DNA of 46,560 bases, from the NCBI GenBank assembly GCA_947475715.1, contig CANJNY010000025.1, positions 1-46,560 on the forward strand, given 5' to 3'. Source of the DNA: Prolixibacteraceae bacterium (GTDB lineage: Bacteria; Bacteroidota; Bacteroidia; Bacteroidales; Prolixibacteraceae). Numbering within the stretch: the stretch's first letter is position 1; every line of letters starts with the position of its first letter. Shown here piece by piece: positions 546-38,259 of this stretch. The translations under genes were made by a program, and so were the position numbers. Below the pieces are notes generated by a model, which worked only from the letters and a program-made list of their open reading frames with translations, was not told where the DNA came from and did no database searches.

Positions 546-2471
546 TTATCTGAAAATACCAACTTTAGATTTCTCCAAAATTACTCTTATTTCCTCAACA
601 ACATCTTCATTATCAATAGTTGATGGCATTTGAAAATCAACCCCATCGGAAATATTTCGAATTAATTTTCGCAATATTTTACCCGAACGGGTTTTTGGTA
701 AACGCTCTACTATAACGACATCTCTCAACGAAGCCACGGCACCTATCTGATCCCTGACCAAATGAACCACCTCATGTTGTAACTGAAAATGTTCAATATC
801 CTCTCCGTGTTTAACCACAACCAATGCCAATGGAACCTGACCTTTTAAAGCGTCGTACATTCCAACTACGGCACATTCAGCAACCGAATGATGCGAAGAG
901 ACAATCTCTTCCATCTCGGCTGTCGAAAGCCGGTGACCTGCAATATTGATTACATCATCGACCCTGCCGGTGATAAATATATAATTATTTTCATCCTTGA
1001 AACCACCATCGCCGGAGAAATAAAATCCCGGAAACCGATCTAAATATCCCTCCTTAAAACGGCGGTGGTCGTTCCATAGATTCATCATCATTCCGGGAGG
1101 TAATGGTAATTTAATGACCACATATCCTTCCTGATTCGGACCTAACTCTTCGCCGTTTTCTCCAAATATCCGAATATCAAATCCCGGAACAGCCTTTCCG
1201 GCAGACCCGGGATTAACCGGAAAATAATCGAGACCCATCATATCGGAGATCATCGGCCATCCCGATTCGGTTTGCCACCAATGGTCAATGGCCGGAACCG
1301 GAATATGCCGGTTATACCATTCCAATGTAGCCACATCACACCGTTCGCCTGCCAGAAATTGGGTTCTCAGGCAAGACAAATCATATTTTTTAATGAACTC
1401 TCCGTTTGGATCTTCCTTTTTTATCGCTCGGATAGCTGTTGGAGCAGTAAACATGATGCCCACTTTGTGTTCGGAGATTACCCTCCAGAAAGTACTCGCA
1501 TCGGGTGTTTTAATTGGTTTTCCTTCAAAAATTAGCGTAGTATTTCGGTTAATAAGCGGTCCATAAACAATATAACTATGTCCTACCACCCAACCCATAT
1601 CGGAAGCAGCCCAAAATACTTCGTCCTGTTTTGCCCCATAAATATATTGCATTGAGAATTTTAACGCTGCAGCATAACCTCCTGTATCCCTTACAATTCC
1701 CTTCGGTTTTCCGGTCGTTCCCGAAGTATAAAGGACGTATAATGGATGGGTTGCATGTACTGGAATACAGGGGGTTTCCTCTGAGCCATATACGATTGCA
1801 TCGTAATCGACATCGTATATTTTAAAGGGAATCCTGGCACCCAATTTCCGATTGAAAACAATAACTTTTTCAGGTTTATGGGATGCCAGTTCAATGGCCT
1901 CATCGACCAAAGGTTTATAGGCTATTAACCGGTCAATCTCAATTCCTGAGGAGGCGGTTATAATAAGTTTTGGTTTACAATCGTCAATTCGCAAAGCCAG
2001 TTCATGGGGTGCGAAACCCCCAAAAACTACAGAATGGGTCACTCCTATTCTTGCGCAGGCGAGCATGGCAAAGGCTGCCTGAGGAATCATTGGCATATAA
2101 ATTACCGCGGTATCTCCCTTTTCTAATCCCAATAAAAGCATACCTCCGGCTAATTTAGCCACTTCAGTTTTTACTTCATTATAAGTATATTTTAGAACCG
2201 TTTGGGTAACCGGCGAATCATAAATAAATGCGGTTTGTTCTCCAAATCCATCCTCAATATGCTTATCTAAAGCTAAATAACAAATATTTAACTCACCATC
2301 CCTGTACCAAAGCGGATAGTTATTTTCGTCTTTGGATAATATAACCGATGGCTTAGTGTACCATGCTATTTCATCTGCCTGTTTTGCCCAAAATATTTCA
2401 GGAAAATCAATACTCTCTTTGTAAAACTCCTTGTAGCTTTTCATATAGCTTATCGTTTGAAGACTATTCAT
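546..2471 (-). CDS. prpE: Propionyl-CoA synthetase-like acyl-CoA ligase
   Basis: An AMP-forming acyl-CoA synthetase of 641 residues that activates a short-chain acid (propionate or acetate) to its CoA ester in the cytoplasm. The P-loop-like motif reads YTSGTTGKPKGIVRDTGG. The RDTGG and SDMGWVVGHSYIVYGPL stretches resemble PrpE/ACSS3 more than acetyl-CoA synthetase, which usually has HTTGGY. WWQTESGWP is motif A5, and PKTRSGKILRK near the C-terminus holds the catalytic, acetylatable lysine (about K598). The N-terminus of E. coli PrpE aligns better with the internal Met10 (start at 2444), so the true protein may be nine residues shorter; neither start has a clear ribosome binding site. It stands alone with its own promoter (2520-2549) and terminator (494-535). 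Substrate preference for propionate is inferred from motif similarity. Confidence 0.9.
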   Translation of the reverse strand: MNSLQTISYMKSYKEFYKESIDFPEIFWAKQADEIAWYTKPSVILSKDENNYPLWYRDGELNICYLALDKHIEDGFGEQTAFIYDSPVTQTVLKYTYNEVKTEVAKLAGGMLLLGLEKGDTAVIYMPMIPQAAFAMLACARIGVTHSVVFGGFAPHELALRIDDCKPKLIITASSGIEIDRLIAYKPLVDEAIELASHKPEKVIVFNRKLGARIPFKIYDVDYDAIVYGSEETPCIPVHATHPLYVLYTSGTTGKPKGIVRDTGGYAAALKFSMQYIYGAKQDEVFWAASDMGWVVGHSYIVYGPLINRNTTLIFEGKPIKTPDASTFWRVISEHKVGIMFTAPTAIRAIKKEDPNGEFIKKYDLSCLRTQFLAGERCDVATLEWYNRHIPVPAIDHWWQTESGWPMISDMMGLDYFPVNPGSAGKAVPGFDIRIFGENGEELGPNQEGYVVIKLPLPPGMMMNLWNDHRRFKEGYLDRFPGFYFSGDGGFKDENNYIFITGRVDDVINIAGHRLSTAEMEEIVSSHHSVAECAVVGMYDALKGQVPLALVVVKHGEDIEHFQLQHEVVHLVRDQIGAVASLRDVVIVERLPKTRSGKILRKLIRNISDGVDFQMPSTIDNEDVVEEIRVILEKSKVGIFR

Positions 2472-2519
2472 TACCGGGTAGGTTCAGATTAGTCAATGGT
2501 AAGTTGGTTATTAACTGGT

Positions 2520-2549
2520 CAAAGATACCATTTGAATCCAATTCACAAC
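2520..2549 (-). promoter_or_regulatory. Promoter of prpE, resembling the CRISPR repeat
   Basis: On the minus strand TATCTTTG (2527 down to 2520) matches the Bacteroidetes -7 core TAnnTTTG. A TTG lies 18 bases upstream, close to the usual -33 spacing. Transcription would start near 2513, about 42 bases before the gene. The whole 30-base segment matches the first 30 bases of the CRISPR repeat at 26 positions by my hand alignment, and similarity ends sharply after TATCTTTG. It could alternatively be a degenerate repeat or a tracrRNA anti-repeat. Confidence 0.65.
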
Positions 2550-2622
2550 TATCGGACTAAACGAATGAATTACAAAGAAGTAACATGGATGAATTGGACT
2601 CCGTTTATTAAATCAAATATAC

Positions 2623-2630
2623 TACTTTTG
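2623..2630 (+). promoter_or_regulatory. Possible -7 promoter element for the ubiquitin-domain gene
   Basis: TACTTTTG fits TAnnTTTG on the plus strand. No good -33 TTTG is seen at the expected spacing, and the implied 5' leader would be about 165 bases. The rest of the 2472-2800 gap is AT-rich and holds no ORF worth calling. Confidence 0.35.
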
Positions 2631-2800
2631 CGATATTAAAGATTATTTTTATTCAGTCTTAATAGAAAGTAACTGTAATCATTGTTTTTTGATAAAATAA
2701 TAAGAATTGGCTCTTAATGCAGATGATCCGATGAAGAGGAACTCAATTAATAAAGGGTGCAAAAATTTCAATTATAATTTCAAACATTGAGACCAATAAA

Positions 2801-4693
2801 ATGAGCTATCCCAACCGATTGATTCTAGTCCTCTTTTTTTCGCTTCTTACCATCGTGGCGTATCCTATGCAAATTTTTATAAAGACATTAACCGGAAAAA
2901 CTTTAACGCTAGATGTAGCTCCATTTGAAACAATCGGGATTGTTAAGTCGAAAATTCAGGATAAAGAGGGAATTCCTGCCGATCGGCAACAATTTATCTT
3001 TGCTGGAAAAGAACTATTAAATGAAAAAACATTATCTGATTATAATATTCAAGATAAATCAACCTTGCATTTAGTCATCAGAGTATTCTCATGGACCGGA
3101 ACTTCCGGAACCAACTGGAACGATACGCTGAATTGGAACCCCCGTGCAATCCCGGATTCGACCTCCACTATCGTTATTCAAAGTGCAGCCAACTATCCTT
3201 CGATTTCGGATCTTAAGATTGGATCACTGGGAAAAATAACTATTGCTCCCGGTGCCACATTAACAGTTTCTGATTCGTTAGTCAACAACGCGATTAACGG
3301 TTTGACGATTCAAAGTGACTCCACAGGAACAGGATCCTTGATCGTGGGCAAATCCACCGGAACCGGGAGTGTATCCTCACAGCAGTGGGTGAAATCCGGA
3401 GCCTGGCACCTGGTGTCATCACCGGTGTCACAGGATGTCGATAGCTTTCTTACCAATAATAATCCCATCATCCCCGCAAGGGAATCGCTGCGTGGAATGA
3501 TGGATTATAATCCCGCAAATAACCAGTGGAACAACTATTTCACTACCGGAAATTCCAATGGAAATATTGGTGCCGGAAAAGGATTCGGACTTCGTGTTGA
3601 CACCGCCGATGCGGCAGTTAAAGCTACCGGAGTACTTCAGGCCGGAATAATCATTGTGCCTGCCAGTCCCGGATACTGGAACTGTATCGGAAACCCGTAC
3701 TCATCGGCTATTGGAATCACTTCAGGCTCAATAGCTGCCAGTAATTTTATAACAGAAAATGGATCCAATTTTGATCCTGAATATGGGGCAATCTATGTTT
3801 GGGATAAAACGGATACCTACAATGGAATGGATGGCAACTATACTGCGGTATCGAATGCAAATTCTTCCGGGCTGGATAATCTTCAGCAAGGCCAAGGCTT
3901 TATGGTTAAGCGGATTGCTTCGGGTGGATCTGATTTTATTTTCACCCCCGACATGCAGCTTCATTTACCCACTCTGTCGCTAAAATCGAATAATACCGGT
4001 TGGCCGACAATCAAGCTGATCGCAACTGCCAATGCTCAGACCGGAACAACGATCATTACGTTTAGCTCGGGTATGACCAAAGGGCTTGATATCACCTACG
4101 ATGCCGGTCTTCTGCGCGGATATGGTGATATTCAGCTTTACACCCGTCTGGTTGAAGATCCTGGGAACACACCGCCGATTGCCATTCAGGCACTGCCTGA
4201 TAATCAATATAATGAGATGATAATTCCCGTTGGAATCGAATCAAAAAACGGAGGAGAGGTAATCTTCTCGGCCGAGACTCTGAATCTAAATTTCGATTGT
4301 CAGGTAATCCTCGAAGACCGTCAAAAAGGAATCTTAACTAATCTGGCAACGTCAAAATATAAGGTTGCTTTGGCTCCAAATTCTGTTAGTGCTGACCGGT
4401 TCCGGCTCTATACCTCAACCCCAAAAATTTCAACTTTAAAAGATCAAACGTCGGACGAGGGAATATTGAAGGCTTATGCTGTGTGCGATACTGAGATACG
4501 CATTATTGGAGCGGTAAATCAGGGTGCAGTGGCTTCGTTGTTTGCTTCGAACGGTCGTCAAATAGTGATGCAACGGCTCAATGAGGGGACTCTTAATGTA
4601 ATTCCAACACGGGGATTAAATACCGGAGTTTATTACCTGACCATTCGTGATCAGGCAAATGCTCAGTGCTTCAAAATATTGCTGATGCATTAA
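2801..4693 (+). CDS. Secreted ubiquitin-domain protein with T9SS sorting domain
   Basis: A protein of 630 residues. Residues 1-20 form a signal peptide ([14 protein letters not shown]), so the mature protein would start almost directly at [17 protein letters not shown], a ubiquitin domain (residues 23-95). By hand alignment 51 of 73 positions equal human ubiquitin. The Leu8/Ile44/His68/Val70 surface patch and lysines 6, 11, 27, 29, 33 and 48 are kept; Lys63 is Asp, and the C-terminal LRGG is replaced by VFSW, so it cannot be conjugated in the normal way. After it comes a WTG...NWND..NW segment common in Bacteroidetes secreted proteins (about 97-140), then a long beta-rich region. The last 80 or so residues resemble the T9SS type A sorting domain ([10 protein letters not shown] near the end), implying export through the outer membrane and surface attachment or release. 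Function unknown; no E1, E2, E3 or deubiquitinase gene is nearby. Bacteroides fragilis is known to secrete a ubiquitin homologue, but as a small stand-alone protein. Confidence 0.9.
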
Positions 4694-4741: not shown

Positions 4742-7147
4742 TTATCCCTTTGTGGCCTGCACTTTTTTAGTCTCGCCATTGATAATGATTGTCACCATAC
4801 GTGGTTTTTCGGAGGTAATCTTATAGCTGGTTACCTTACCGTTTTTCCATTGAAGATCAACGCTGAAATTTCCACGTGCCTTAACTCCCTCAACCGATCC
4901 TGTATTCCAGGATGAAGGAAGAGCAGGCAGAAAACGGATAATTGGTTGCCCGTCACCGGTTTTTTCATGACTTTGAATAATCATCTCAGCAATTGCGGCA
5001 CATCCTCCAAAATTACCATCGATCTGAAAAGGGGCATGGAGGCAAAACAGGTTCCCGGCACCGCGTCCAATCAACAAATCAATTAATTTATTGGCATGAT
5101 CGCCATCCTGCATGCGAGCCCAGAAATTGGCTTTCCAGGCCATTGACCACCCGGTTGATTCATCACCGCGCCGTTCAAGCGCTAGTCTGGCCCCTTTAAA
5201 CAGCTCCGGAACCTGCGGATTAATCTCCGTTCCCGGATATAGTCCCCATAAATGCGACGAGTGACGATGATGGGGATCGGTCTCTTCGAAATCTTCCTGC
5301 CATTCCATGATACGCCCCTCTTTGTTCACCTGAGTCGGTTTAAGCCTTGCTTTAGAGGCATCGAGACTTTTGGCAAAAGATTCATCGATACCAAGAGTAC
5401 GGGCTGCTTCAGCAGTGCTTGCAAACAGTCCCCGGATAATTTGGAGGTCAAAGGTAGAGCCAATACAAAATGAGGTGGTCTGACTTTTCCCATCACTATC
5501 GGTATAACGATAACCATTCTCCGGTGAATTTGATGGCGCAGTAACTAACCGATGTGTCTTAGGATCCTCAACGAGTACGGCCTGACAAAATTCACTCGCC
5601 CCACGCAGTAACGGGTAATATTTTTTCAAAAATTCTTTATCCTGGGTAAAGGCATAATGAGTTGAAATATGTTGTGCTAACCAGGCACCACAGGTTGGAC
5701 CCACGCAAGCTCCCAAATTACTTGGTGAGGTATCAAACCAGGGGTTTTGCGTGTGATTGGCCATCCATCCCGGGGCGTTATAATAGGCCTTAGCGGTTTT
5801 AGCGCCTTCCACTGCCACACCTTCCATAAAACGGATCAACGGAAGGTGACAATCGGATAAGTTAGCTACTTCGGCCGGCCAGTAGTTCATCTGTAAGTTG
5901 ATGTTGCTATGAAAGTCGCCGCGCCATGGGGTGTCATATTCTTCAGCCCAGATTCCCTGAAGGTTGGTTGGCAATTGTGAATCAGGACGTGATCCGGAGA
6001 CCATCAGGTGGCGCCCAAATTGAAAATACAGGGCTGCCAGAGCCGGGTCGGGAGTTGTCTGAGTCGCACTGACCCGGTCGGGTGTAGGAAGTTGCGAGTT
6101 TGCACCCTGAGGCAAGGTAATACGACATCGGTTCATAAAGGAGCCGTGATCGGCTGCTACATCACTAAGGATTGAACTAAAAGTTTTTTTCAGGGCACCA
6201 GCCACCCGTTGATGTGCAAGATCAGCATAATCTTTGTGATACAGATCTGTGCCAGCGCTGACAATCAGTGTTGCCTCATCTGCCCCGGTGATGGAATATC
6301 CGGAATCAGTTATTTTTATTTTACCCCCTTTAACCGATATCCCGAGCACTGCCAGGTACTTTACCCCTTCACCGGAAACGCCGGCGGGTTTAACAAACGG
6401 AAGCTGACCTTCCATTATCTGGACGCCATTTGCCGATCGTAAAGTTGCAAATTCTTTACGGGAGAGGGAGGCAGAAAATGAAAGAGAGCCCGGTTTATCT
6501 CCCTTAAGATTTAAAGCGATCACCTCATCGGGTTTCGAGACGACTAAATCGCGGGTAAAAGTGATCCCGTTTTGTTTGTATTCGGTATGCGAAACTCCCC
6601 GCATGAGATTCAGGTCACGGCGATAGCCTGAATGTGAGGGGTCAGCAACATTTTTTTCAGGTGTAGCAGATAACACGGCACCATTGAATAAGAGGGTTAA
6701 ATCTCCAAGGGTTTGATACGATCCGAATTGATCGCGGATATTCCATCCTTTAACCCCTTCGGGGTATCCGAAGTTTTTATCCATCTCCTTTTGGGCTGCA
6801 GCGATATTTCCGGCGAAGAGATTTTTTCGTACATCCGGAAGACACTTATAGGCATCATAACGGTTTCCATCATAGGGACCGCCGGTCCAGACCGATGATT
6901 CGTTAAGTGCAATTCGCTCAATGTCAATGCCCCCCATATCCATCGCCCCAAGTCGTCCGTTACCTAATACGGTAGATTGATGAAACGTTACGGCTGGTTT
7001 TATAAACCACACGCTCATCGGTTCTGCCGGAGGGATAATAACCTCTGCCGGTAATGTTTTAAGGGTACCAGGCTGCATAGCAACTACAGGAGTAGCTAAG
7101 GCCATGAATACCAAAGCCTTGCAGGTTATTCGGATTAGATTATTCAT
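4742..7147 (-). CDS. GH95 alpha-L-fucosidase, secreted
   Basis: A protein of 801 residues of glycoside hydrolase family 95, which removes terminal alpha-L-fucose (mostly alpha-1,2) or alpha-L-galactose by inversion. A signal peptide (about residues 1-23, ending TPVVA) sends it to the periplasm or surface. The N-terminal domain starts with GNGRLGAM and [15 protein letters not shown], typical of the family. Family-defining catalytic motifs are present: [14 protein letters not shown] with Asn415 and Asn417, [19 protein letters not shown] with Glu618 as probable acid, and QIDGNFGG with Asp710, corresponding to the Asn/Asn/Glu/Asp set known in the Bifidobacterium enzyme. Length is normal. It is not in a classical SusCD locus; the MFS transporter gene upstream is on the same strand and could bring in a sugar, but a palindromic element at 7178-7236 separates them. 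Confidence 0.93.
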
Positions 7148-7475: not shown

Positions 7476-9260
7476 TTAGTCATGAAGTTTGTTAATTTTT
7501 CTATCGATATAAATCATTCCAATTATAAAAGATACCGCGGCAATACCTATCGGGTACCATAATCCTTCAAGGTAAAATTCCGGATTTCCTGCACTTTTAG
7601 CTGTGGTTACGAAATAGGTGGAAATAGCTGGCAGTAATCCCCCAAAGATTCCGTTACCAACATGGTACGGCAATGACATCGAAGTATACCTGATTTTTAC
7701 CGGGAACATCTCAACCAAAAATGCTGCAATAGGGCCATAAACCATTGTAACAAACAATACCTGAATAAAGACCAGAAGTATCAGATACCATTTTACATCG
7801 CTGGGAATATTTTTTAAAACCGCCACATTTGGCTTAGCGCCCATTCGATTTTCATGAGATTGATCGGCTGTTTTACCATCGGAAAGTTGCAAAGGTATTC
7901 CTGCCTCGATGGTATCTGTTTTTGCAGGAGTGGCCCCATCCTTTAAATTATTTTTAAGCTTTACTACCTTGTGAACTGTAATCCCCGATTTATCTCTGAG
8001 GTCATATTTTAACCAGATTTCATTGGTTAAATTTTTCTTTGCATCGTAGGCTAATTCCTTTGCCAGGAATAAGGTATCTGTTCTGGTATAATGAAATACC
8101 GCCCCACTTGAGAATATTGAGTCAGATTTTGTGACAATAAAAACTTTTGTGTTTTTTAATGCCGGAACAGTTTTATTTGGTTCGGTCAGAACTGTCGCAA
8201 CAGGGGCCGCCACGATTTTACAACTTTCCATTACCCAGGAATTCCCTCCGGCTTTCATTGTTTTTGCATCAGTGAGAACATACATTTGGCGGTATATTGG
8301 ACGGTATAAGAATATAGCCAGTAAAAGTCCCATCATCATAATTGCCTTACGACCAACCTTATCACTCAACCAGCCGAAAAGAACAAAGAAAGGAGTTCCC
8401 ATTAATAAGGAGATACCTAATAATGTGTCCACCTGCGAAGAATCAATATTTTGGACTGTTTTCATAAAACTCATCGCATAAAACTGTCCGGTATACCACA
8501 CAACACCTTGGCCCATAGTTGCTCCAAATAATGCGAGTAAGACAAATTTGAGGTTATAGCGATTATTGAAACTCTCTTTTATTGGATTTACGGAAGTCTT
8601 TCCCTCCAATTTTGCCTTCGCAAAAACAGGGGATTCTGACATGTTTTTACGAATTATGTAGGAGATGATCACCATAAAGATGGATATCCAGAATGGAACT
8701 CTCCACCCCCACTCCTCAAAGGCTTCTTTTGAAAGGATTCCTTTGGTTAAAAGAATGACCATTAGGGATACGAAAAGACCTGCAGTAGCTGTAGTCTGTA
8801 TCCAGGAGGTCCAATATCCTTTTTGATCTTTTGGAGCGTGTTCAGCCACATAGGTTGCAGCACCTCCATATTCGCCTCCCAGGGCGAGCCCCTGAAGCAA
8901 TCTTAGGGTCAGTACCAATAAAGGGGCCCAAAAGCCAATGGTCTGATAACTTGGAATACATCCGATTAAAAAAGTGGCCCCTCCCATTATTAACAGAGTG
9001 ACCATAAATGTGTACTTTCTTCCGATTAAATCCCCTAATCTGCCAAAGAAAAGGGCACCAAACGGCCTCACAACAAATCCTGCTGCAAATGTTGCCAATG
9101 TAGACAGAAAGGCGGCTGTGGGATTGTCTGTGGGAAAAAATTTTGTGGATAGTACAACGGCTAAACTTCCGAAGATATAGAAGTCATACCATTCAATCAT
9201 TGTTCCAAGGGAGGATGCCGTGATTACCTTCCAAATCCCTTTCGTGGATTTTCTACTCAT
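7476..9260 (-). CDS. MFS metabolite:H+ symporter with periplasmic insertion
   Basis: A 594-residue inner-membrane transporter of the metabolite:H+ symporter (ProP/KgtP/ShiA-like) branch of the major facilitator superfamily. Signatures are MIEWYDFYIFG in helix 1, the GRLGDLIGRKY loop after helix 2, RLLQGLALGGEYGGA in helix 4 and GWLSDKVGRKA after helix 8. Family members usually have 430-450 residues. The extra length is an approximately 160-residue hydrophilic segment (about 325-488) between helices 9 and 10, which should face the periplasm. Substrate unknown; the family moves carboxylates, betaines and similar compounds. The downstream 71-residue protein is its likely partner. A near-match to the -7 core (CATTTTTG, minus strand, 9322 down to 9315) lies about 55 bases upstream. 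Confidence 0.9.
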   Translation of the reverse strand: MSRKSTKGIWKVITASSLGTMIEWYDFYIFGSLAVVLSTKFFPTDNPTAAFLSTLATFAAGFVVRPFGALFFGRLGDLIGRKYTFMVTLLIMGGATFLIGCIPSYQTIGFWAPLLVLTLRLLQGLALGGEYGGAATYVAEHAPKDQKGYWTSWIQTTATAGLFVSLMVILLTKGILSKEAFEEWGWRVPFWISIFMVIISYIIRKNMSESPVFAKAKLEGKTSVNPIKESFNNRYNLKFVLLALFGATMGQGVVWYTGQFYAMSFMKTVQNIDSSQVDTLLGISLLMGTPFFVLFGWLSDKVGRKAIMMMGLLLAIFLYRPIYRQMYVLTDAKTMKAGGNSWVMESCKIVAAPVATVLTEPNKTVPALKNTKVFIVTKSDSIFSSGAVFHYTRTDTLFLAKELAYDAKKNLTNEIWLKYDLRDKSGITVHKVVKLKNNLKDGATPAKTDTIEAGIPLQLSDGKTADQSHENRMGAKPNVAVLKNIPSDVKWYLILLVFIQVLFVTMVYGPIAAFLVEMFPVKIRYTSMSLPYHVGNGIFGGLLPAISTYFVTTAKSAGNPEFYLEGLWYPIGIAAVSFIIGMIYIDRKINKLHD

Positions 9261-9413
9261 AACTAGAATAATTGGTTAGTTAAATTCTCAATTATGAAGT
9301 ATACACACAACTAGCAAAAATGTTCAGAATTAATGAAGAAATTTATTATTATGTCTATTTAATCGCAATTGGCTCTCTAACGAATCGTATAATCAGAGAA
9401 TCTTCCCATTCTA

Positions 9414-10403
9414 CTAATAATCGAAAAAGTGGGCCACCAAACCTGATCCTCTGTTGGTAGAATCAAAGGCGTGCAATCCGAATTCATCGGAGAGCTTCTT
9501 AAAACTTTCGATACCACGCACTGAGTTTCCATTTACATCAAGAAGGGGTGAATAGGTGCCGATTCCAAGTTGCCGGTTTACAATACCCATGATACCGCCA
9601 CCGACTCCGCTCTTGGCTGGCAATCCTACATCGTGGGCCCAAAATCCTGAAGAATCATACATTCCACAGGTAAACATTACTGATAACGTATTTCGAATAG
9701 AGGTCATGTCAAATACCTGCTTGCCGGTAATTGGATTCTGCCCCAGATTGGAAAAAGTTGCCCCCATTACTGCCAGATCAAGGGTTGAAACACTTATTGA
9801 ACACTGCCTGAAATAGAGATCAAGAGCCTTATCTACAGGCTCTTTAATGGCCTGCGTACTCAATAAAAGATGTCCGATAGCCCTGTTCCGGTGACCGGTT
9901 AACATCTCTGAATTATAAACATCCTCATTGAGTGTAAGCTGACGTCCTGCAGCGCGCGAAAAGCGGTCTAAAATGTACTCATAAGCCTCATTTCCCAGGT
10001 GATTATATAATAACCCTGCGATTGTAATTGCACCGGCATTAACCATCGGATTATACGGACGAAGAGTACGGGGATCAAATTCAATTGCATTAAAACGATC
10101 ACCACTTGGCTCGACTCCAACACTCTCTAAAACATCCCTGCCCAATAACTCAAGAGCGATGCAATAATTAAGCGCTTTGGAAATTGACTGTATGGTGAAG
10201 GTTGCGTCAACGTCTCCTACCGAATGAATATGCCCTTTGTTTGTAGCTATTGCTATACCATAAATATTTGGATCTACTTTTGCAAGTTCCGGAATATAAT
10301 CAGCTAAGGCTCCTTTGCGATTCTCTTTAACACTATCATAGATCTGACTAAGAACATGATTAATATCTGAAGATTTCTGCGATGCAATGTCTAAATTATC
10401 CAT
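9414..10403 (-). CDS. glsA: Glutaminase A
   Basis: A 329-residue glutaminase of the serine-dependent beta-lactamase-fold family, hydrolysing glutamine to glutamate and ammonia in the cytoplasm. The catalytic SxxK is in TIQSISKALNY (Ser73, Lys76). The family motifs VGVEPSGDRFN, NPMVNAGAI, LTGHRNRAIGHLL and SGVGGGIMG are all present. The length is slightly above the usual 300-310. Stand-alone gene on the minus strand, followed 153 bases later by the MFS transporter gene. No promoter core of the TAnnTTTG type was found directly upstream. Confidence 0.95.
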   Translation of the reverse strand: MDNLDIASQKSSDINHVLSQIYDSVKENRKGALADYIPELAKVDPNIYGIAIATNKGHIHSVGDVDATFTIQSISKALNYCIALELLGRDVLESVGVEPSGDRFNAIEFDPRTLRPYNPMVNAGAITIAGLLYNHLGNEAYEYILDRFSRAAGRQLTLNEDVYNSEMLTGHRNRAIGHLLLSTQAIKEPVDKALDLYFRQCSISVSTLDLAVMGATFSNLGQNPITGKQVFDMTSIRNTLSVMFTCGMYDSSGFWAHDVGLPAKSGVGGGIMGIVNRQLGIGTYSPLLDVNGNSVRGIESFKKLSDEFGLHAFDSTNRGSGLVAHFFDY

Positions 10404-10851
10404 TATTATTACTCTACTTTAATATAACCGTTAAAACTAACAGCTTTTCCGATTAAACACCTTGTATATCCTCATTGTTCTTTAAAATTTAATATTTTTT
10501 TAATAATCGCAATTTATTTGGGGGCTCACAACTCTTTTTTTTATTTTTTTCCGTAGTAATCATAAATATATTAGGGGATAAGGTTATATTCTTTATTTAT
10601 ATTAAAAATATAAAAATTAATAAATCAAAACCTGCAATCCAATAAGGAGGTCAAACTTCACTTATTATTAAACCAAATGATTTAAGCTATATACTTATAA
10701 TTAGTCAAAGTTCTGGTCAGGATTAACAGGTTTTTTAAAAATCAAGGAGAGGAAGAAAAGGTGCCTAAGAGAATGGATTATTATAATTTGTTTTATCTGT
10801 TACTTCGATTGCAAGCGAAGCCTTCGCTTAAGAGGATATGAAGATAGGCGA
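10404..10851. other. AT-rich intergenic region without a gene
   Basis: About 450 bases between the starts of glsA and the ends of the redox block. No ORF, RNA or promoter core could be supported. A small palindrome AAGCGAAGCCTTCGCTT is at 10813-10829, just after the peroxidase gene, and could act as its terminator. A pyrimidine-rich run lies near 10530-10550. Confidence 0.5.
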
Positions 10852-12027
10852 TCAATTAATGTTCCCCCCCACCATCAAATTACTGGGAACCCTGGAAGGA
10901 ATACTCTTGTCATATTTTTCATCATTAAGGGAATTAAGAAACTCTACGATCAGAGAGATATCCTTAAAATCAACATTTAACTTCTCCGTTAAAGGGTCGA
11001 TCTGCTCAGGTTTTATAGTTGAATTAGCGATTTTACCTCCCGACAGGTCCTCGTAAAACTCGAGCACATTTTCAAGGGTTTTTAGTTTTCCATTGTGCAT
11101 GTAAGGATAGGTTGTTCTGAGATTACGTAATGAAGGGGTTCTGAACGCATACCTTTTCTCAAACCCATCATCGGGAGATTTGAGTTTCCCGTTATCAGCC
11201 ACTCCCATTACATGAGTCTTGAAATCCGAAAACATCGGACCATGGTGACATTTTGTACAACCGTCCTTAAGAAAAAGATTCAAGCCATCGAGTTCATTGT
11301 GCGAAAGAATTGAATGATTTCCCCGCATATACTGGTCGAACCGTGAATTATTGCCAATGATTGTTCGTTCATAGGCAGCGATTGCTTTCCCTAAATTTTC
11401 TTTAGTTATTGCATTCTCCGCACCAAATGCCTCCTTAAATAACTGTCGGTATTCTGCGATCTGTTTTAGCCGGCTTAATACTTTATCGAGAGCATCACTT
11501 TGTTCATAAGCATGCCCCCGCATCTCTTCCAATGCTTTGATCGGTTCGAGAGCTTGATTTTCAAGACTTTTCACCCTGAGATCCCAGAACATCGGAGCCT
11601 GAGATCCCACCTTGGGTTCACCATTGGTCAAGCCGTTAAAAGCGGTGTTAACCACAGTCTGGGAATTTCGTTTTACAAAAGGAATATCATTGGGTTGGTT
11701 AAATGCTCTGGAGAGTCCTAATCCGGAGCCATTTACTCCGATGGAAATCTCAAGACTCTCGGCAAAACCATACTCTGGGTGATGGCAGGTGGCGCATGCA
11801 ACATCTTTATTCCCAGAGAGTATCGGATCGAAAAAGAGCAGTTTCCCCAATTCTGTTTTTTCGCTGGTCATCGGATTATCTTCCGGGACCGGAACGGTTA
11901 AAGGTAAGGCTCCCAAAACAGAAATATCATCAGGAATCGATTTAACCCTTTTCTTTGGATTGGAACCGGCATTACATGAGGCGATTAAACCGGTAATGGT
12001 AACAATGTAAAGCAGATTCTTAATCAT
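10852..12027 (-). CDS. Di-heme cytochrome c peroxidase / MauG-like lipoprotein
   Basis: A 391-residue member of the di-heme peroxidase family (CcpA/MauG). Two CxxCH heme sites are visible: CATCH at 78-82 and CTKCH at 257-261, with the usual spacing. A lipobox (GLIASC, Cys18) marks it as a lipoprotein, probably anchored in the outer membrane or periplasmic face. Bacterial peroxidases of this type reduce H2O2 with electrons from cytochromes; MauG-like members oxidise protein side chains or organic substrates. It lies last in the run of redox genes but is separated from the eight-gene block by a 46-bp repeat array (12073-12281), so joint transcription is uncertain. Confidence 0.92.
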   Translation of the reverse strand: MIKNLLYIVTITGLIASCNAGSNPKKRVKSIPDDISVLGALPLTVPVPEDNPMTSEKTELGKLLFFDPILSGNKDVACATCHHPEYGFAESLEISIGVNGSGLGLSRAFNQPNDIPFVKRNSQTVVNTAFNGLTNGEPKVGSQAPMFWDLRVKSLENQALEPIKALEEMRGHAYEQSDALDKVLSRLKQIAEYRQLFKEAFGAENAITKENLGKAIAAYERTIIGNNSRFDQYMRGNHSILSHNELDGLNLFLKDGCTKCHHGPMFSDFKTHVMGVADNGKLKSPDDGFEKRYAFRTPSLRNLRTTYPYMHNGKLKTLENVLEFYEDLSGGKIANSTIKPEQIDPLTEKLNVDFKDISLIVEFLNSLNDEKYDKSIPSRVPSNLMVGGNIN

Positions 12028-36795: not shown

Positions 36796-38259
36796 ATGGC
36801 AAAAGATAAGATTATCGGAAGATTGCGGGAAACAGAATTATTAGAAAAAGCGCTTCATACCGCAGAACCAGAATTCATTGCGGTATATGGCCGTCGAAGA
36901 ATTGGGAAAACGTTTCTGGTCAGGGAATATTATGAAGATTCAATCTGTTTTGAAATGGTGGGTGTTCACCAAACATCGCTGAAAATACAGCTTCAAAATT
37001 TCGCACAGTCGCTAAAAATTGCGATGGGTTTGGGGATCCCGCCGGAGACTCCCGATACCTGGTTTAAGGCATTTTCGCATCTGACCTATTTTATAGAATC
37101 ACTAAACAAGAGCAAGGGTAAAAATAAGGGTAAAAAAGTAATTTTTATTGATGAACTTCCCTGGTTGAACACCCCAAAATCGAATTTTTTAGCCGCACTG
37201 GAACATTTTTGGAATAGTTTTGGTTCGAAACAAAACAATCTGATTCTGGTAGTTAGTGGGTCAGCCGCCTCCTGGATGATTCAAAAAATTGTGAACTCCA
37301 ATGGGGGGCTCCATAACAGGCTAACTCGCCAAATCAGGTTAATGCCATTTACACTTTCTGAAACCGAGTCCTTTTTGAATTCCCGGGGAGTTCACCTGAC
37401 ACGATATCAAATCATATCTCTTTACACGACCATGGGAGGAGTTCCGTTCTATCTGAAACAGGCAGAACCGGGTCTTTCTTCGGCGCAGATTATCGATCAG
37501 GTATGTTTTTCAAAAGATGGAATTTTACGCAGTGAATTTGACAGACTATTTTCCTCCCTTTTCGATCATAATGATCAGCATATTAAAATTATCACCGCGT
37601 TAAAACAGCATCGTTCAGGGATGAGCAGAAATCTGCTCTTAACCGAAGCCAAAATCCCTAGCGGCGGCACAGCCACGCAAATATTGGATGATTTGGAAGA
37701 ATCGGGATTTATTGCCTCCTGGATTCCTTTCGGGAAAAAATCGAATGATGCCATTTACCGAATCACAGATGAGTTTACACTCTTCTATTTTGACTGGATA
37801 CAACCCCTTGGAAAGAATAATCCTGGAAAGGGGTATTGGCTTTCAAGACAAAGTGATCCCCAAAGATATGCATGGGCGGGATATGCCTTTGAAGGGATCT
37901 GCATGAAACATCTGCAGCAAATCAAAAATGCCCTTGGGATAGGGATGGTAGAAACCTTTTATGGACCGTGGTATTATTCGGCTCCAAAAAATACAACTGA
38001 AACAGGAGTTCAAATTGATTTACTGATAGATAGAAAAGACTCCACAATCAACATTTGCGAAATAAAATTTTCAGAGAACGATTTTACAATTGATAGCGAA
38101 TATGCCAAAAAGCTCAGACAAAAAATCGAAATATTTAAAAACATAACCAAAACAAGGAAAAATATTTTTCTTACCATGATTACGACCTTTGGAATTGTAA
38201 ATAACTCCTATTCAAATGATATCGTATCAAATTCGCTAACTATTGACAGTTTATTTTAA
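36796..38259 (+). CDS. AAA ATPase with C-terminal PD-(D/E)xK-like (DUF234) domain
   Basis: A protein of 487 residues. The N-terminal P-loop domain has AVYGRRRIGKTFLVREYY (Walker A) and KVIFIDELPWL (Walker B), followed by the sensor SGSAASWM. A winged-helix-like part follows (SGMSRNLLLTEAKIPSGGTA). The C-terminal part has QIDLLIDR (Asp408) and ICEIKFS (Glu422, Lys424), the pattern of a PD-(D/E)xK nuclease fold, as in the DUF234 partner of archaeal and Bacteroidetes ATPases. The longest ORF starts at a TTG (36754) inside the predicted promoter, so ATG 36796 is preferred. It stands alone, preceded by a likely operator. Function unknown; DNA-related or defence-related roles are possible. Confidence 0.88.
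   Translation: MAKDKIIGRLRETELLEKALHTAEPEFIAVYGRRRIGKTFLVREYYEDSICFEMVGVHQTSLKIQLQNFAQSLKIAMGLGIPPETPDTWFKAFSHLTYFIESLNKSKGKNKGKKVIFIDELPWLNTPKSNFLAALEHFWNSFGSKQNNLILVVSGSAASWMIQKIVNSNGGLHNRLTRQIRLMPFTLSETESFLNSRGVHLTRYQIISLYTTMGGVPFYLKQAEPGLSSAQIIDQVCFSKDGILRSEFDRLFSSLFDHNDQHIKIITALKQHRSGMSRNLLLTEAKIPSGGTATQILDDLEESGFIASWIPFGKKSNDAIYRITDEFTLFYFDWIQPLGKNNPGKGYWLSRQSDPQRYAWAGYAFEGICMKHLQQIKNALGIGMVETFYGPWYYSAPKNTTETGVQIDLLIDRKDSTINICEIKFSENDFTIDSEYAKKLRQKIEIFKNITKTRKNIFLTMITTFGIVNNSYSNDIVSNSLTIDSLF

What the first reader, a model, noticed from the sequence alone, without database searches (positions are those of the whole stretch)
2801..4693. Bacterial surface protein that begins with a near-authentic ubiquitin domain
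Residues 23-95 match human ubiquitin at 51 of 73 positions by hand alignment, far above normal for bacterial ubiquitin-like folds. The domain follows directly after a signal peptide and is fused to a T9SS-exported protein. The Leu8/Ile44/His68/Val70 interaction patch and Lys48 are kept, but LRGG is lost, so it may act as a decoy for ubiquitin-binding proteins of a eukaryotic host or predator rather than as a modifier. Bacteroides fragilis ubiquitin is a known but stand-alone secreted case; a ubiquitin-T9SS fusion is unknown to me.
Basis: partly seen in the sequence, partly recalled or inferred. Interest (0 to 1): 0.92.

Follow-up and report, generated by a model that had tools for sequence, protein, structure and literature searches.

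The report
Ubiquitin head on bacterial surface protein
A bacterium carries a real eukaryote-type ubiquitin, stripped of its attachment tail, as the front piece of what looks like an exported cell-surface protein, and similar exported ubiquitin heads turn up on unrelated proteins of many other bacteria.

Summary
ORF 2801-4693 (630 aa) encodes a signal peptide, ubiquitin residues 1-73 (51 of 73 identical to human ubiquitin) and a T9SS-type body. It is not a chimera: two congeneric genomes carry the same fusion at the same locus. Relatives on this chassis, in the same and neighbouring genomes, have other N-termini, so ubiquitin fills a variable head slot.

The architecture is not unique. In a phylum sample 6 of 395 genomes have ubiquitin, and all 7 domains sit directly behind a signal peptide. 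I found 36 such domains, in 8 bacterial phyla and two archaeal MAGs, stand-alone or on T9SS, autotransporter, PEP-/IPTL-CTERM or other bodies. I found no paper on these fusions; the published case I saw is stand-alone B. fragilis BfUbb.

The decoy reading is not favoured: the Ile44 face is no better kept than other surface sites, and both orthologues lost Lys48. I read it as a captured, non-conjugatable ubiquitin reused as an exposed binding head, perhaps against other bacteria as BfUbb acts. The function is inferred, not shown.

The parts
2801..2860 (+). Signal peptide, aa 1-20 ([20 protein letters not shown]); Tyr21-Pro22 (2861-2866) lie between the likely cut site and ubiquitin Met1
   Evidence: Hydrophobic core, best 10-residue hydropathy mean 3.25; aa 1-22 conserved in both orthologues, 18/22 and 14/22 identical. 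Cut site inferred by eye, not by SignalP.
2867..3085 (+). Ubiquitin domain, aa 23-95 = ubiquitin residues 1-73, without RGG
3086..4498 (+). RemA/RemZ-type beta-rich chassis, from the FSWTG...NW...NW segment onward, about aa 96-566
   Evidence: Profile of A3 (this body and 32 relatives) matches RemA 892-1433 at E 3.1e-48 and RemZ 577-1112 at E 1.5e-40; the body alone did not; model mean pLDDT 82.9; 42-50% identical to nine chassis relatives without ubiquitin, 26-43% to the rest apart from the two orthologues.
4499..4675 (+). T9SS type A sorting domain, aa 567-625
   Evidence: TIGR04183 20.7 bits, cut-off 23; 23.5 bits, over the cut-off, in the genome search; 29 of 33 members of A3 match PF18962 at E<=0.01.
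2472..2800 (.). AT-rich intergenic region between divergent genes; no convincing promoter match found
   Evidence: GC about 0.29; the pattern TTTG-N18-23-TANNTTTG (recalled Bacteroidota consensus) has no hit here; one weak sigma-70-like site at 2595-2623, in a region where 4 such sites were found and 6.3 expected.
546..2471 (-). Neighbour: acyl/acetyl-CoA synthetase-like gene, conserved beside the fusion in both orthologous loci (named by eye)
4742..7147 (-). Neighbour: glycoside-hydrolase-95-like gene, present here but absent from this position in G408 and G404 (named by eye)
7476..12027 (-). Neighbours in conserved order: MFS transporter-like, glutaminase-like and di-haem cytochrome-c peroxidase-like genes (named by eye)

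Best explanation
It is a surface protein built as signal peptide + ubiquitin head + RemA/RemZ-type T9SS chassis + sorting domain. SHOWN by sequence: the parts, their order, the orthologous fusion in three genomes of one genus, the RemA homology of the chassis family, and T9SS genes in the genome. INFERRED: Sec takes the protein to the periplasm, the T9SS takes it across the outer membrane and the sorting domain is removed or anchored, leaving ubiquitin as the outermost, N-terminal globule. The head came from a eukaryote-type ubiquitin; it cannot be conjugated (no LRGG, and its C-terminus continues into the chassis), so it works as a folded scaffold. Across exported ubiquitins the fold is kept but the ubiquitin-recognition face is not favoured, so I think the head binds something other than the ubiquitin machinery. 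The most likely role is contact-range recognition or antagonism of other bacteria, the activity on living cells shown for BfUbb, here carried on an adhesin chassis in place of RemA's own head. Architecture: about 0.97. This function: about 0.35-0.4.
For: Fusion and synteny. T9SS: SprA 2 hits, 33 sorting tails, GldK over cut-off, GldJ-like protein under its cut-off. RemA/RemZ homology. Chassis relatives in the same and other genomes bear no ubiquitin but other N-termini, so the head slot varies. Precedent: in F. johnsoniae signal sequence + mCherry + RemA CTD is transported by the T9SS (PMC10994853, passages). BfUbb: exported, signal peptide cut exactly at ubiquitin Met1, no terminal Gly, and the synthetic mature protein inhibits sensitive B. 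fragilis strains (PMC5705921, passages). Recurrence: 7 of 7 ubiquitin domains in the phylum sample are directly behind a signal peptide; 32 of 36 exported domains have a signal-peptidase-like -3/-1 pair exactly at Met1. Non-conjugatable as a class: L73, R74, G75, G76 kept at 0.14, 0.08, 0.14, 0.01. Fold network kept at 0.91 against 0.71 for random sites, Ile44 patch not favoured (the network sites are recalled and were picked). Tandem, diverged stand-alone exported ubiquitins in Flavobacterium and Pedobacter resemble BfUbb in layout.
Against: No activity or ligand of a fused form came up in my searches. The head's dN/dS is 0.27-0.36 between the window and its orthologues and 0.14 between those two, so purifying, with no sign of positive selection; divergence may be plain relaxation. 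A tethered head may not reach what free BfUbb reaches. The window's ubiquitin is only 49% identical to the BfUbb structure 8hm2 and has no cysteine. The window's own Ile44 patch is intact. One other Bacteroidota ubiquitin match over the Pfam cut-off (L101, 28.3 bits) lies inside a long protein, near residue 450 of its frame, not behind a signal peptide, so the N-terminal position is not universal.
Confidence: 0.4

Rival explanations
1. Inert stabilising cap: ubiquitin is a very stable, fast-folding domain (recalled), and it is kept only as a folded N-terminal cap or leftover on a surface protein, with no specific ligand.
For: Conservation follows the fold (core 0.81, fold network 0.91) and not the Ile44 face; the window's head has diverged more than its chassis, 53% against 74-76% identity to the orthologues; many bodies without detectable kinship, 17 blastp clusters among 23.
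Against: Repeated capture of ubiquitin itself, at the mature N-terminus, in many phyla and on different anchors is odd for a replaceable cap; stand-alone exported copies kept in tandem arrays have nothing to cap.
Confidence: 0.3
2. Decoy or mimic for ubiquitin-binding proteins, E1 or deubiquitinases of a eukaryotic host or predator.
For: Leu8, Ile44, His68, Val70 and Lys48 intact in the window; [quoted passage not shown]
Against: Lys48 lost in both orthologues, Arg42 in all three, Arg72 in both orthologues; recognition face not preferentially kept over 36 domains and depleted in 24 fused ones; the E1 complex was explained by a C-terminal cysteine that this domain lacks; the genera with exported ubiquitin whose titles name isolates (Pedobacter, Bizionia, Flavobacterium, Malaciobacter, Denitrificimonas) are, as I recall, free-living; an exported surface protein does not reach a host cytosol by itself.
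Confidence: 0.2
3. Adhesin head: the ubiquitin domain binds a surface, glycan or particle and takes part in attachment or gliding, as RemA's head is thought to do, without antagonism.
For: RemA/RemZ chassis; GldJ-like protein in the genome, under its cut-off; related chassis proteins carry other heads; one fused relative elsewhere carries a carbohydrate-binding module (L058, PF03442).
Against: Ubiquitin is not a known lectin or adhesin (recalled); gliding in this organism is untested.
Confidence: 0.25
4. Assembly or binning artefact.
For: The genome is a 315-contig assembly and the head has unusual GC.
Against: Three congeneric genomes carry the full-length fusion in the same gene order.
Confidence: 0.01

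Closest known systems
BfUbb, Bacteroides fragilis exported ubiquitin (PMC3352274, PMC5705921; structure 8hm2, a cysteine mutant)
   Same: Eukaryote-type ubiquitin behind a bacterial signal peptide, no terminal Gly-Gly.
   Different: BfUbb is a free 76-aa protein with a C-terminal Cys and inhibits rival strains; here ubiquitin is fused to a large T9SS-type body, has no Cys, is 49% identical to 8hm2 over 75 residues, and activity is unknown.
RemA / RemZ of Flavobacterium johnsoniae (8gl6, 8gl8; PMC10994853)
   Same: The C-terminal ~540 aa, from the WTG...NW segment to the T9SS sorting domain, is homologous end to end at the level of the family profile.
   Different: RemA's first ~890 residues are not matched; a single 73-residue ubiquitin stands there instead. 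No evidence yet for gliding.
   Same: Signal peptide + ubiquitin + Por_Secre_tail; L046 has the same chassis family (25% identical over 577 aa).
   Different: The L046 body is no closer to the ubiquitin-bearing than to the ubiquitin-less chassis proteins, so it may be a separate fusion (one origin not rejected, AU p 0.146, long branch). My searches found no description.
Ubiquitin-headed autotransporters and CTERM proteins (L029, L055, L077, L078; L030, L049, L034)
   Same: Ubiquitin directly after the signal peptide, no free LRGG end, outer-membrane barrel or sorting signal at the C-terminus.
   Different: Other export or anchoring systems and bodies without detectable kinship to this one.

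Membership tests
Ubiquitin family (PF00240) | Profile match over nearly the full domain, beta-grasp fold | tested here: met
Conjugating ubiquitin | Free or processable C-terminal LRGG | tested here: not met
   Residues 72-76 read RVFSW and run on into the chassis.
Conjugating ubiquitin | E2 enzyme in the same genome | tested here: inconclusive
   PF00179 no hit in the own genome, but the control rang nowhere either.
BfUbb-like exported ubiquitin | Signal peptide directly before ubiquitin | tested here: met
   Hydropathy only; Pro at -1, so two extra residues are likely.
BfUbb-like exported ubiquitin | Stand-alone 76-aa mature protein with C-terminal Cys | tested here: not met
   Fused to a 535-aa body, no Cys in the domain.
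BfUbb-like exported ubiquitin | Growth inhibition of rival strains | not testable with these tools
   Needs protein and strains.
T9SS type A substrate | C-terminal sorting domain | tested here: met
   TIGR04183 23.5 bits, cut-off 23, but 20.7 by hmmscan and PF18962 17.0 against 27; 29 of 33 family members match PF18962 at E<=0.01.
T9SS type A substrate | T9SS in the genome | tested here: met
   SprA 2568.9 and 2082.7 bits; GldK 577.6 bits.
RemA/RemZ | C-terminal ~540-aa region | tested here: met
   Family profile E 3.1e-48 and 1.5e-40. The single sequence alone did not find them.
RemA/RemZ | RemA's own large N-terminal head | tested here: not met
   Residues before 892 of RemA are not matched; ubiquitin stands there instead.
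RemA/RemZ | Moves on gliding tracks | not testable with these tools
   A GldJ-like protein, under its cut-off, is present; motility unknown.

The most novel reading that the evidence does not exclude
This is one member of an unrecognised, polyphyletic class of prokaryotic surface proteins in which eukaryote-type ubiquitin has been captured again and again as the mature N-terminal head, on at least three kinds of export or anchoring signal (T9SS, autotransporter, PEP-/IPTL-CTERM) and on other bodies too. It is kept for its fold while its recognition faces are remodelled, that is, ubiquitin reused as a bacterial surface-recognition or antagonism scaffold. In this genus the head has diverged about twice as fast as its chassis at the protein level, or has been swapped.
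Probability: 0.5. Interest if true: 0.87.

Novelty: new variant of a known kind. Interest (0 to 1): 0.74.

Why it matters
Ubiquitin is the textbook eukaryotic modifier. Repeated capture as a non-conjugatable, exported head on bacterial surface proteins would be an unusual reuse of a signalling protein as an external binding scaffold and would place BfUbb in a much wider setting. It gives a panel of natural ubiquitin variants and six genomes whose titles name isolates (Pedobacter cryoconitis, Bizionia argentinensis, Malaciobacter halophilus, Denitrificimonas caeni, two Flavobacterium) in which to ask what an exported ubiquitin binds. The RemA link gives a tractable system (F. johnsoniae) for testing display.

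Tried and rejected
Chimera: rejected. Unique architecture: rejected. Ile44-face decoy: disfavoured. One origin of all ubiquitin heads, or a named eukaryotic donor: the 73-column tree is unresolved, 3 of 36 inner branches starred; holding the window with L067/L068 is not rejected (AU p 0.308) but the free tree does not show it. A swapped head in the window lineage: suggested by 53% head identity, below all 465 chassis windows, by only one identical derived residue in all three heads, R42Q (sites 24, 25, 38, 40, 63 and 73 are changed in all three but not to one residue), and by low GC; fast divergence from one near-canonical head would explain the first two as well, so left open. Promoter: no convincing match. 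Whole-protein fold with 3 sequences: poor (pLDDT 35.4), but the head is readable. A census of other phyla with the genome search was not possible, so outside Bacteroidota only the genome contigs and viral scans speak; the genome-contig scan used six peptide patterns of the window's domain (ubiquitin residues 1-8, 16-23, 27-34, 41-48, 52-59, 61-68), misses heads unlike these and could inflate conservation there. The 10 HMM-found domains give the same patch result. Neighbour names are by eye. The Jiang et al. paper on BfUbb (Nat Microbiol) is used for no claim; I saw it only as a reference, and a search for its target in held papers gave nothing.

Papers: PMC5705921, PMC3352274, PMC10994853, PMC12853789, PMC11354881, PMC4378268: passages only. 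RemA as a mobile cell surface lectin: title in a reference list only; that paper is not held. Searches for a description of exported or surface ubiquitin fusions: (two asked about BfUbb's target); I saw listings, several of them capped (20 of 127, 20 of 45, 30 of 354, 15 of 70), in an open-access library without preprints. No listed title or abstract start described such fusions.

Full report

Not an artefact. Three of 18 genomes of the genus have a ubiquitin domain: this one, G408 and G404. In the other two the whole fusion is present (73% and 72% identical). The gene order acs-like | fusion | MFS-like | glutaminase-like | cytochrome-c-peroxidase-like is shared, except that the window has a GH95-like gene between the fusion and the MFS gene (gene names by eye). 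The bodies of the three form a clade (100/99).

What the body is. Pfam gives only a weak T9SS tail. I aligned it with 32 relatives (A3). A profile of these matches the C-terminal region of Flavobacterium johnsoniae RemA end to end (profile 1-524 on RemA 892-1433, E 3.1e-48) and RemZ (E 1.5e-40) among solved chains. The window body alone does not reach them: phmmer found only two weak ribosomal-protein matches, which I take as chance. The body model is confident (mean pLDDT 82.9) and beta-rich. [quoted passage not shown] The genome has SprA (2 hits), 33 T9SS sorting tails including this one, GldK and a GldJ-like protein below its cut-off. Related chassis proteins in the same and neighbouring genomes have a signal-peptide-like start followed by other N-termini or by little else. 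So ubiquitin occupies a variable head position.

How common. Ubiquitin occurs in 6 of 395 genomes sampled across the phylum, 3 of 395 across the class, one of them below the family cut-off, and 5 of 393 across the order, two of them below it; the window's genome is in each sample. All 7 domains of the phylum sample stand directly behind a signal peptide, as do L079 (= L065) of the class sample and L100 of the order sample (by eye). The other four hits do not: L101, which is over the cut-off with 28.3 bits, lies near residue 450 of its frame; L066, L102 and L103 are below the cut-off, and their frames show nothing ubiquitin-like at the start (by eye). A scan of GTDB contigs gave 35 loci. In these, the window and eight genome-search loci I examined 55 ubiquitin domains; 36 have a strong hydrophobic leader directly upstream and 19 do not by this measure. 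The 36 come from Bacteroidota, Pseudomonadota, Planctomycetota, Verrucomicrobiota, Campylobacterota, Actinomycetota, Bacillota and Synergistota, plus two archaeal MAGs (labels of records; many are MAGs and single contigs may be misbinned). In 32 of 36 the -3/-1 pair at ubiquitin Met1 fits signal peptidase I; the window and its two orthologues, with Pro at -1, are three of the four exceptions. Bodies carry autotransporter barrels (L029, L077, L078, L055; L057 below cut-off), IPTL-CTERM (L030, L049), PEP-CTERM (L034), Por_Secre_tail (L045, L046, L079) or CBM_X2 (L058); the others scanned had no named anchor over its cut-off. The 23 with 30 or more residues after ubiquitin fall into 17 blastp clusters, so many fusions are probably separate events, although some bodies are cut by contig ends. 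In IMG/VR, 13 loci were found, several of them again signal peptide + ubiquitin (L088, L090, L092-L094, L096, L097, by eye).

What selection keeps. Over the 36 domains, weighted for similarity, core sites are kept at 0.81, LRGG at 0.09, the Ile44 patch at 0.68 and the patch rim at 0.58 (site lists recalled). Random non-core sites give 0.72; the patch is not above it (P 0.68), nor in the 10 HMM-found domains (P 0.61), and in the 24 fused ones patch plus rim is below it (0.53 against 0.70, P(random<=obs) 0.005, the lowest of nine comparisons). Sites that I recall as stabilising the fold (D21, K27, Q41, D52, T55, D58, Y59) are kept at 0.91; I chose them after seeing the table, so this is descriptive. 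In the window's own family Lys48 and Arg72 are gone in both orthologues and Arg42 in all three. This argues against a role that needs ubiquitin receptors to see ubiquitin.

Evolution of the head. Window and orthologue heads are 53% identical, less than any of 465 chassis windows of the same length (64% and 61% at lowest), whereas the L067 and L068 heads are 89% identical. Each is about 70% identical to human ubiquitin, and the three share one identical derived residue, R42Q. Between the window and its orthologues dN of the head is about twice that of the chassis and dN/dS 0.27-0.36 against 0.13; dS is near saturation. The window head has GC 0.315; apart from one window over the head itself, 3 of 973 coding windows, all in the gene at 36796, are as low. 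Either a near-canonical head was captured shortly before the species split and then diverged fast, or the head was replaced once. The ubiquitin tree cannot decide.

Mechanism. Shown: parts, order, orthology, T9SS genes, RemA homology of the chassis family, loss of the conjugation tail. Inferred: Sec then T9SS export, display of ubiquitin as the outermost domain, binding to a ligand that is not the ubiquitin machinery. The exported bacterial ubiquitin that has been tested, BfUbb, inhibits rival B. fragilis strains as a synthetic 76-aa protein (PMC5705921, passages) and also inhibited ubiquitination in vitro, with an E1 complex put down to a C-terminal cysteine that is absent here (PMC3352274, passages). 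I therefore put bacterial recognition or antagonism first (0.4), inert cap second (0.3), other adhesion third (0.25) and decoy fourth (0.2). These figures are judgement; the readings are not exclusive, so they add up to more than 1.

Novelty. In the held library I found no paper on ubiquitin fused to T9SS, autotransporter or CTERM proteins (listings, several capped); subscription papers are mostly not held, so this is no proof. The 2017 BfUbb paper calls B. fragilis one of a few bacteria with a eukaryotic-like ubiquitin. I file the window protein as a new variant of a known kind (exported bacterial ubiquitin) on a known chassis (RemA-type T9SS substrate), and take the wider class as the more interesting point.

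Noticed in passing
L054:4705-6231, L082:4893-5814, L053:6001-6231, L041:5186-6585: Tandem, diverged stand-alone exported ubiquitins: 3, 2 and 1 copies at one syntenic place in two Flavobacterium genomes and an unnamed relative (after an ABC-transporter-like gene, by eye) and 4 copies in Pedobacter cryoconitis. Five of the six Flavobacterium-type copies have a Cys in a short C-terminal tail; BfUbb has a C-terminal Cys.
   Followed up: partly
L088:2902-3228: A viral-collection contig encodes signal peptide + complete ubiquitin with intact LRGG at the very end: an exported ubiquitin that could in principle be conjugated.
   Followed up: no
L056:80-1702 and L060:4426-6036: Two archaeal MAGs carry signal peptide + ubiquitin + a shared ~440-aa body with a hydrophobic stretch near the C-terminus (bodies 72% identical over 414 aa).
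   Followed up: no
L055:6001-6219 and L058:5998-6216: Ubiquitin heads of an alphaproteobacterial autotransporter and of a Lachnospiraceae CBM_X2 protein (51 of 73 identical) are sisters with strong support (100/99) although blastp finds no kinship of the bodies: the head alone may have moved between phyla.
   Followed up: no
L037, L039, L047, L051, L052, L062: Contigs mostly of Actinomycetota-type MAGs (one titled Bifidobacterium breve) carry ubiquitin, mostly followed by a ...GVVTY... domain; four of the six loci have two ubiquitin frames; no signal peptide by my measure: another fusion type.
   Followed up: no
L087:1996-2745, L089:2944-3486: Viral-collection contigs encode three and two ubiquitin repeats joined after GG by short Gly-rich linkers.
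   Followed up: no
L101, near residue 450 of its frame: A ubiquitin-like stretch inside a long protein of a genome of the same order, over the Pfam cut-off but not N-terminal.
   Followed up: no
window 7476-9260: The MFS-like transporter holds a long hydrophilic insert (roughly aa 320-490, by eye) that is also present in both orthologous loci.
   Followed up: no
L067/L068 fusion genes, aa 1-200: dS between the two orthologues is about 0.4 over the ubiquitin head and aa 95-200 but about 0.95 over the whole body, which may mean recombination of the N-terminal part between the species.
   Followed up: no
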